The position numbers were made by a program, and so were the translations under genes. A stretch of 64,000 bases of DNA from assembly GCF_019974135.1 (NCBI RefSeq), contig NZ_AP025017.1, forward strand, positions 2,666,001-2,730,000, read 5' to 3'. The stretch comes from Actinomyces capricornis. Lineage in GTDB: Bacteria; Actinomycetota; Actinomycetes; Actinomycetales; Actinomycetaceae. Shown piece after piece: positions 30,963-32,606 of the stretch. The notes below the pieces were generated by a model. The model did no database searches and was not told the DNA's origin. It worked only from the letters and a program-made list of their open reading frames with translations. Position 1 is the first letter of the stretch. The number at the start of each line of letters is the position of its first letter.

Positions 30963-32606
30963 GTGGCTTCTTCCACAATGACACGCGAGCGCGCCGAGCT
31001 CTCCGACGTCGATGACACCGTCGAGGACGAGGACTTCGACCTCGACGAGGAGGATGACGACAAGGAGGACGAGGACTTCGACGAGGACTCGCAGGACGAG
31101 CAGGACGAGGAGGACCTCGAGGACTCCGACGACGACTCCGACGACCGGGATGACGAGCAGGAGGCCTCGGGCGCCCAGGACGAGGGCCCTGCCCCCGAGC
31201 TGCGAGACTACTACCTGGACGTGAGCCTGGAGGAGGACGGCGACGGCACCAAGCGCCGCCCCTTCAACACGGTGGCCTCCCTCAAGGGGGTGCGCCTGGC
31301 CCCGGGCGCCACCCTGTTCATCCGCTCGCGCACCGTCGTGGAGGACCTGGAGATCTCCGGGCACGGGACCATCGAGGAGCCCATCACCCTGGCCCCCTAC
31401 GGGCACGGGCCCGTGCCCCGCTTCATCGTGGCCGGCTCCGAGCCCATGGTCGCGCGCGACTACCTGGCCCAGAACGGCTACATCTTCCGCGGCTGGGTCA
31501 TCAAGGGCATCAAGATGCAGCCCTCCATCGCCGCCCTGACCGGTGAGCTGGAGAGGATGCGCCGCGAGGAGGCCGAGAGGGCGGCCGCCAAGAAGGCGGG
31601 CAAGCGCGCGAAGTCGGGGGACAAGGACGGCTCCTTCACCGTCTCGGACACCGATGAGGGCGACGAGCCGGCCCAGCGCGTGGTCACCGCCGGTGCCACC
31701 GCCGACCCGGTCAAGGACTACCTCAAGCAGATCGGCAAGGTGGCGCTGCTCAACGCCGAGCAGGAGGTGGAGCTGGCCAAGCGCATCGAGGCCGGGCTCT
31801 ACGCCGAGCACCTCCTGGCCGAGGAGGGCAACGACCTGCCAGCCAAGCTGCGCCGCGAGCTGCACTGGGTGGCCCAGGACGGCCAGCGGGCCAAGAACCA
31901 CCTGCTGGAGGCCAACCTGCGCCTGGTGGTCTCCCTGGCCAAGCGCTACACCGGCCGGGGCATGCTCTTCCTGGACCTCATCCAGGAGGGCAACCTGGGC
32001 CTCATCCGCGCGGTGGAGAAGTTCGACTACACCAAGGGCTTCAAGTTCTCCACCTACGCCACCTGGTGGATCCGCCAGGCCATCACCCGGGCCATGGCCG
32101 ACCAGGCCCGCACCATCCGCATCCCGGTGCACATGGTGGAGGTCATCAACAAGCTCGCCCGCGTCCAGCGCCAGATGCTCCAGGACCTGGGCCGCGAGCC
32201 CACTCCCGAGGAGCTGGCCGTCGAGCTGGACATGACCCCGGAGAAGGTCGTCGAGGTCCAGAAGTACGGGCGCGAGCCGATCTCCCTGCACACCCCCCTG
32301 GGCGAGGACGGGGACAGCGAGTTCGGCGACCTCATCGAGGACTCCGAGGCTGTGGTGCCCGCCGACGCGGTGAGCTTCACCCTCCTGCAGGAGCAGCTGC
32401 ACGCCGTGCTCGACACGCTCTCGGAGCGGGAGGCCGGCGTGGTCTCCATGCGCTTCGGCCTGACCGACGGCCAGCCCAAGACCCTGGATGAGATCGGCAA
32501 GGTCTACGGGGTCACCCGTGAGCGCATCCGGCAGATAGAGTCCAAGACCATGTCCAAGCTGCGCCACCCCTCGCGCAGCCAGGTCCTGCGCGACTACCTG
32601 GACTGA
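30963..32606 (+). CDS. sigA: Primary RNA polymerase sigma factor with an unusual N-terminal insert
   Basis: A 547-residue sigma-70 group 1 factor. Core regions are canonical: 1.2 (about 248-280, [11 protein letters not shown]), region 2 (318-388, with [14 protein letters not shown] and [11 protein letters not shown]), region 3, and region 4 (485-540, with [11 protein letters not shown]). The N-terminus is odd. Residues 12-67 are almost all Asp/Glu. Residues 83-185 read like the opening rungs of a right-handed beta-helix ([46 protein letters not shown]). An Ala/Lys/Arg-rich linker precedes region 1.2. The GTG start at 30963 has AAAGGA upstream. It is followed by a strong hairpin. Confidence 0.95.

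What the first reader, a model, noticed from the sequence alone, without database searches (positions are those of the whole stretch)
31209..31518. Right-handed beta-helix-like segment inserted in the primary sigma factor
Seen: residues ~83-185 of the sigma factor carry, in order, [45 protein letters not shown] and [10 protein letters not shown]. Known: secreted beta-helix enzymes commonly begin with a Tyr-Tyr-Val start, G-T-x-x-x-P-F/W-x-T-L, L-x-P-G-D-x-I/V-x-x-R, S-G-T-x-x-x-P-I-T-I-x-x-Y-G and then a rung ending in R-G-L-x-I-x-G. The match in order and spacing is striking in an intracellular transcription factor. Inference: region 1.1 has been replaced or extended by a fused beta-helix cap, flanked by an acidic tail and a basic linker. 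It may gate promoter access or bind a partner.
Basis: partly seen in the sequence, partly recalled or inferred. Interest (0 to 1): 0.8.

Follow-up and report, generated by a model that had tools for sequence, protein, structure and literature searches.

The report
Secreted-enzyme module inside primary sigma factor
In the bacterial genus Actinomyces, the protein that switches on most genes carries a conserved extra domain related to part of secreted sugar-cutting enzymes, a combination not seen in the relatives examined.

Summary
The finding holds. The ORF 30963-32606 (+) is the primary sigma factor (547 aa). Residues about 81-186 are an insert homologous to the N-terminal cap of right-handed beta-helix enzymes: residues 75-199 alone hit lacto-N-biosidases and a PL6 lyase in the PDB (E 1.4e-5 to 8e-4); the reversed sequence does not. 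It is in the sigma factor of 49 of 49 Actinomyces genomes, under purifying selection (dN/dS 0.23, acidic tail 0.72), and in no sigma factor examined outside the genus. Sister genera have a Lys-rich tail there, two genomes of one genus Rho_N/SAP-type repeats. It is a cap, not a full helix; AlphaFold was too uncertain to prove the fold. Best mechanism (inferred): the module took over the nucleic-acid/RNAP-contacting job of that tail, beside the acidic tract. Rivals: entrenched neutral insert, regulator dock, ligand sensor.

The parts
30963..32606 (+). primary sigma factor gene (sigA/hrdB type), GTG start, 547 aa, stop TGA included
   Evidence: PF00140, PF04542, PF04539, PF04545; NCBIfam NF004561 790.6 bits over cut-off 582
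30963..31202 (+). acidic N-terminal tail, residues 1-80, net charge -39, fast-evolving
31203..31520 (+). beta-helix-cap module, residues 81-186, the inserted domain
   Evidence: 49 of 49 genus genomes
31398..31424 (+). YGHGPVPRF (res 146-154), invariant in all 49 genus sequences; H148, V151, R153, F154 occur in 0 of 14 relatives
31521..31604 (+). predicted helix region directly after the module (residues 187-214), highly conserved in the genus
   Evidence: low-confidence models
31629..31703 (+). linker motif [25 protein letters not shown] (residues 223-247), related to the sequence before region 1.2 in sister genera; right edge of the insertion
31704..32603 (+). sigma regions 1.2 to 4 (residues 248-547)

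Best explanation
Shown: a ~105-residue beta-helix-cap module, of the kind found in secreted GH29 fucosidases of the same order, lies in frame in the N-terminal extension of the primary sigma factor of Actinomyces, between the acidic tract and region 1.2, and is kept there under purifying selection. Inferred: it was acquired by the ancestor of the genus, the enzymes being the older home. It is a folded docking module that does the job of the Lys-rich or Rho_N/SAP-type nucleic-acid-binding segments of sister genera. A genus-specific surface (for example R121, H148, R153, R165, K181, and the following helix) contacts RNA polymerase or promoter DNA near the downstream channel and positions the acidic tract, which acts like region 1.1, so the pair sets how easily promoter DNA enters. 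It is not an enzyme (inferred). Likelihood: homology and fusion about 0.95; this mechanism about 0.4.
For: Homology: PDB hits, HMM with decoys, hhalign prob 99.4, E 5.8e-21 over 105 columns to GH29 modules and prob 98.3, E 1.1e-14 over 71 columns to beta-helix caps, tree. Fixation: 49 of 49 genus genomes. Constraint: pooled dN/dS 0.232 in the insert, 0.718 acidic tail, 0.029 core (60 pairs sampled from 902 usable of 1081). Sigma-specific residues: of 66 positions invariant in all 49 over the aligned stretch, 42 are held by a minority of 14 relatives; 16 occur in 0 of 14, ten of them within the module (R121, H148, V151, R153, F154, P161, R165, F175, K181, M185) and six after it. Slot: 0 of 29 sister sigma factors lack a KK pair before region 1.2 (median 24 Lys), 48 of 49 Actinomyces ones have none before the insert (median 1 Lys); 2 of 29 sister extensions match Rho_N and HeH (one of them also SAP) and 1 the H1-like HC2 family.
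Confidence: 0.5

Rival explanations
1. Entrenched neutral insert: the module arrived by illegitimate recombination, folds on its own and is kept because unfolding or losing it would harm sigma folding, not because it does a job.
For: dN/dS is eight times that of the core (0.232 against 0.029); no large co-changed RNAP insert.
Against: Invariant genus-specific residues within the module beyond those shared with the enzymes; retained in 49 of 49 genomes with a single one-residue indel in the aligned insert.
Confidence: 0.25
2. Docking site for a genus-specific regulator (anti-sigma or activator) rather than for RNAP or DNA.
For: Position outside the promoter-binding regions; strong genus-specific conservation.
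Against: No candidate partner was identified; none was searched for systematically.
Confidence: 0.15
3. Built-in ligand sensor: the module still binds a carbohydrate, cell-wall precursor or nucleotide sugar, and so couples housekeeping transcription to metabolism.
For: Relatives sit beside catalytic and F5/8C domains in fucosidases and in beta-helix enzymes.
Against: No call shows a binding role of the fucosidase module; the residues invariant only in sigma are not those shared with enzymes.
Confidence: 0.12
4. Coincidental motif similarity or an ordinary region 1.1.
For: Of 16 insert sequences one gave a weak Pfam match (Chondroitinase B, E 0.076) and 15 none; AlphaFold was uncertain.
Against: no region 1.1 match returned.
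Confidence: 0.02

Closest known systems
Module of secreted GH29 alpha-L-fucosidases (unnamed; no Pfam family was matched over it in the proteins scanned)
   Same: Aligns over 105 of 119 columns including the C-terminal part (WEQYLEANALRARGFVVGN beside [20 protein letters not shown]), hhalign E 5.8e-21; one clade, 100/99
   Different: Lies downstream of a GH29 catalytic domain in large surface or secreted-type proteins, not in a sigma factor; lacks the sigma-specific conserved residues
N-terminal cap of full right-handed beta-helix enzymes (lacto-N-biosidases such as LnbX and TnX, PL6 lyases)
   Same: Y-Y start, G-T..P-F, P-G, G-x-G-T..P-I, Y-G motifs; PDB 7v6m, 6kqs, 7dmk
   Different: No series of further rungs in the sigma factor; the profile match covers 71 columns, though single PDB hits reach residue 109 of the 125-residue query
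Actinobacterial primary sigma factors (SigA/HrdB)
   Same: Regions 1.2-4, the sequence AGAT[AS]DPVKDYL (29 of 29 sisters), acidic tract
   Different: Sister genera have Lys-rich extensions without the module; in a Streptomyces complex HrdB region 1.1 is reported disordered (PMC10936776, passage)
N-terminal domain of human asparaginyl-tRNA synthetase (4zya)
   Same: GDGTKxKPFxT stretch in an intracellular enzyme
   Different: E 0.068, not significant; a lead only

Membership tests
Group 1 (primary) sigma-70 factor | regions 1.2, 2, 3, 4 above curated cut-offs and primary-sigma equivalog model | tested here: met
Group 1 (primary) sigma-70 factor | the only primary-type sigma gene of the genome | tested here: met
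   one match at E <= 1e-100 in G000
Group 1 (primary) sigma-70 factor | recognisable Pfam region 1.1 (recalled as not required in actinobacteria) | tested here: not met
   none returned at E <= 10; none in 8 of 8 sister sigma factors at E <= 0.1
GH29-fucosidase module | homology along the whole module and common clade | tested here: met
GH29-fucosidase module | linked to a GH29 catalytic domain | tested here: not met
   sigma factor architecture
Right-handed parallel beta-helix | homologous N-cap | tested here: met
Right-handed parallel beta-helix | several successive rungs / Pfam Beta_helix match | tested here: not met
   no Beta_helix match
Right-handed parallel beta-helix | predicted fold | tested here: inconclusive
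GH136 lacto-N-biosidase | catalytic residues | not tested
   the insert aligns to 7v6m 10-91 of 587 and 6kqs 252-352 of 665; catalytic positions were not mapped

The most novel reading that the evidence does not exclude
The N-terminal extension of the primary sigma factor is an exchange slot in Actinomycetaceae, filled in different genera by H1-like Lys tails, Rho_N/SAP repeats or, in Actinomyces, a domesticated module from secreted fucosidases; unrelated modules perform the same promoter-access job, making this a primary sigma factor regulated through a recruited extracellular-enzyme domain.
Probability: 0.35. Interest if true: 0.88.

Novelty: new variant of a known kind. Interest (0 to 1): 0.77.

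Why it matters
Primary sigma factors are essential and their architecture is thought to be stable (recalled). Here a whole genus carries in this protein a domain shared with extracellular carbohydrate enzymes. It suggests that the N-terminal extension tolerates domain exchange, gives a natural handle on what this poorly understood segment does in actinobacteria, and may be a genus-specific feature of transcription initiation.

Tried and rejected
Chance similarity: rejected by reversed, shuffled and sister-sigma controls. Ordinary region 1.1: no Pfam match returned. Full beta-helix: rejected, no Beta_helix match. Viral or plasmid source: in viral contigs 47 stretches matched a pattern and none was a relative; no match among 50,697 phage records at E <= 0.01; 4 of 72,556 plasmid records matched, two annotated as beta-helix proteins. 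RNAP co-insertion: none large. Missing RbpA compensated by the module: rejected, RbpA in 20 of 20 genomes. Nesting of sigma inside the fucosidase modules: the best tree has it, but fucosidase-only monophyly is not rejected (p-AU 0.27), so the direction enzyme-to-sigma rests on distribution. Human AsnRS domain: E 0.068, left as a lead.

Rows dropped or partial: of 27 non-sigma places in the family search, 21 were fetched. L042 and L043 gave no module ORF. L051 and L056 were missed by my tblastn and left out of alignments and trees, although their ORFs do match the fucosidase-module HMM and hold no sigma motif. L033, a weak match of the genus search, gave none. The second tree used 10 of 49 sigma inserts, left out L032, L041 and L049, and added 8 of the 14 loci. 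L024 and L058 (broken or cut genes) were left out of dN/dS. The structure jobs used 28 and 23 sequences of the 30 at hand. The order listing is truncated.

Full report
OBSERVATION. The ORF from GTG 30963 to 32606 encodes a 547-aa primary sigma factor with Pfam regions 1.2, 2, 3 and 4 and the NCBIfam primary-sigma model NF004561 at 790.6 bits. Pfam and NCBIfam give nothing for the segment alone, and no region 1.1 match was returned for the whole protein at E up to 10.

DISTRIBUTION. The insert is in 49 of 49 genomes of the genus, in the sigma ORF each time. A scan of genome contigs, with two strict peptide patterns, gave 29 loci, all Actinomyces, among them A. bovis, A. israelii, A. oris, A. 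naeslundii and A. bowdenii; the genus belongs to Actinomycetaceae, Actinomycetales (the collections' own family and order groups are unnamed). In the family, 67 of 213 genomes match the insert, 49 of them the genus. Of the 27 non-sigma places listed there 21 were fetched: 17 ORFs scanned with Pfam have no sigma domain, 2 have no sigma motif, 2 gave no module ORF. In 29 of 30 chosen family genomes a sigma factor was found and all 29 alignments begin at residue 199 or later. In the order sample 389 of 396 genomes matched the full sigma factor. The 7 genus members start at residue 1, every other listed row at 180 or later (list truncated); best E-values are at or below 2.2e-287 inside and at or above 8.2e-200 outside the genus. 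In a phylum sample the insert profile matched 2 of 396 genomes, G000 itself and an 866-aa frame in another family of the class without sigma motifs. Searching the order sample with the fucosidase-module profile matched 30 of 396 genomes; of 26 non-genus places 13 were examined and none has a sigma motif in the part of the ORF held. Limits: these are samples, and a strongly diverged insert could be missed.

CONSTRAINT AND ANATOMY. Mean frequency of the commonest residue over 49 sequences is 0.58 in the acidic tail, 0.87 in the insert, 0.92 in residues 187-210, 0.85 in the linker and 0.965 in the core. Pooled dN/dS over 60 random pairs (from 902 usable of 1081) is 0.718, 0.232, 0.278 (helix and linker), 0.183 (region 1.2 and NCR) and 0.029. 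Of 66 positions invariant in all 49 over the aligned stretch, 24 are shared by at least half of 14 relatives (the cap framework: Y84, D86, G93, G95, P100, P114, G115, G133, G135, P140, Y146, G149, W178 and others) and 42 are not; 16 of these occur in 0 of 14, ten within the module and six after it, where most relatives have no counterpart. This is the pattern expected if the cap framework was kept and a new surface was acquired (inference).

THE SLOT. In sister genera the part before region 1.2 ends in AGAT[AS]DPVKDYL (29 of 29) and is long and Lys-rich (median 24 Lys; 0 of 29 without a KK pair), whereas Actinomyces has a median of 1 Lys before the insert and 48 of 49 without KK (sister ORFs were taken stop to stop, so their lengths and counts are upper bounds). 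Of 29 sister extensions scanned at E <= 0.001, 2 match Rho_N and HeH, 1 SAP and 1 the H1-like HC2 family; the others match no Pfam family. So the module occupies a place that relatives fill with Lys-rich segments and, in a few, with domains of nucleic-acid-binding type.

MECHANISM. For an M. tuberculosis sigma-B holoenzyme region 1.1 is reported to occupy the downstream DNA channel (PMC12000874, section title), and HrdB region 1.1 is reported disordered in a Streptomyces complex (PMC10936776, passage). From this and the slot pattern I infer that the acidic tract acts as the channel occupant and that the module, with its helix, is a folded contact to RNAP or DNA that stands in for the Lys-rich tail. 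Against it: net charge 0, no large co-changed insert in RpoB or RpoC, region 1.1 of Taq sigma-A stated to be dispensable in vitro (PMC4593229, passage), no experiment. RbpA is present in all 20 genomes tested, so the module is not a substitute for it.

NOVELTY. Literature searches for sigma factor with beta-helix or Actinomyces returned 0, 2, 2 and 10 papers; the 10 listed entries (6 of 10) do not, by title and abstract start, describe this fusion; none of them was read. The library holds only open-licence papers. I rate it a new variant of a known kind: a primary sigma factor with a domesticated enzyme module.

Noticed in passing
L117 and L124 (sister genus g32, genomes G198 and G195), N-terminal extension of sigA: The primary sigma factor carries Rho_N and HeH matches (L124 also SAP), another unusual N-terminal domain in a primary sigma factor.
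   Followed up: partly
L109 (G113), sigA N-terminal extension: Histone H1-like HC2 match (E 2.6e-11) in the Lys/Ala-rich tail of a primary sigma factor.
   Followed up: no
L031:634-3858 (G043, same genus): An Actinomyces genome that carries the module both in sigA and in a GH29 fucosidase; the only second match with E under 0.005 in the 49 genus genomes.
   Followed up: partly
L185-L192, 3' end of rpoC: RpoC of 8 Actinomyces genomes has a ~15-residue C-terminal extension that most of 12 relatives lack.
   Followed up: no
G468:C6:82082-82405 (locus L206): Match of the fucosidase module in another family of the order that spans one TGA in frame; described only.
   Followed up: no
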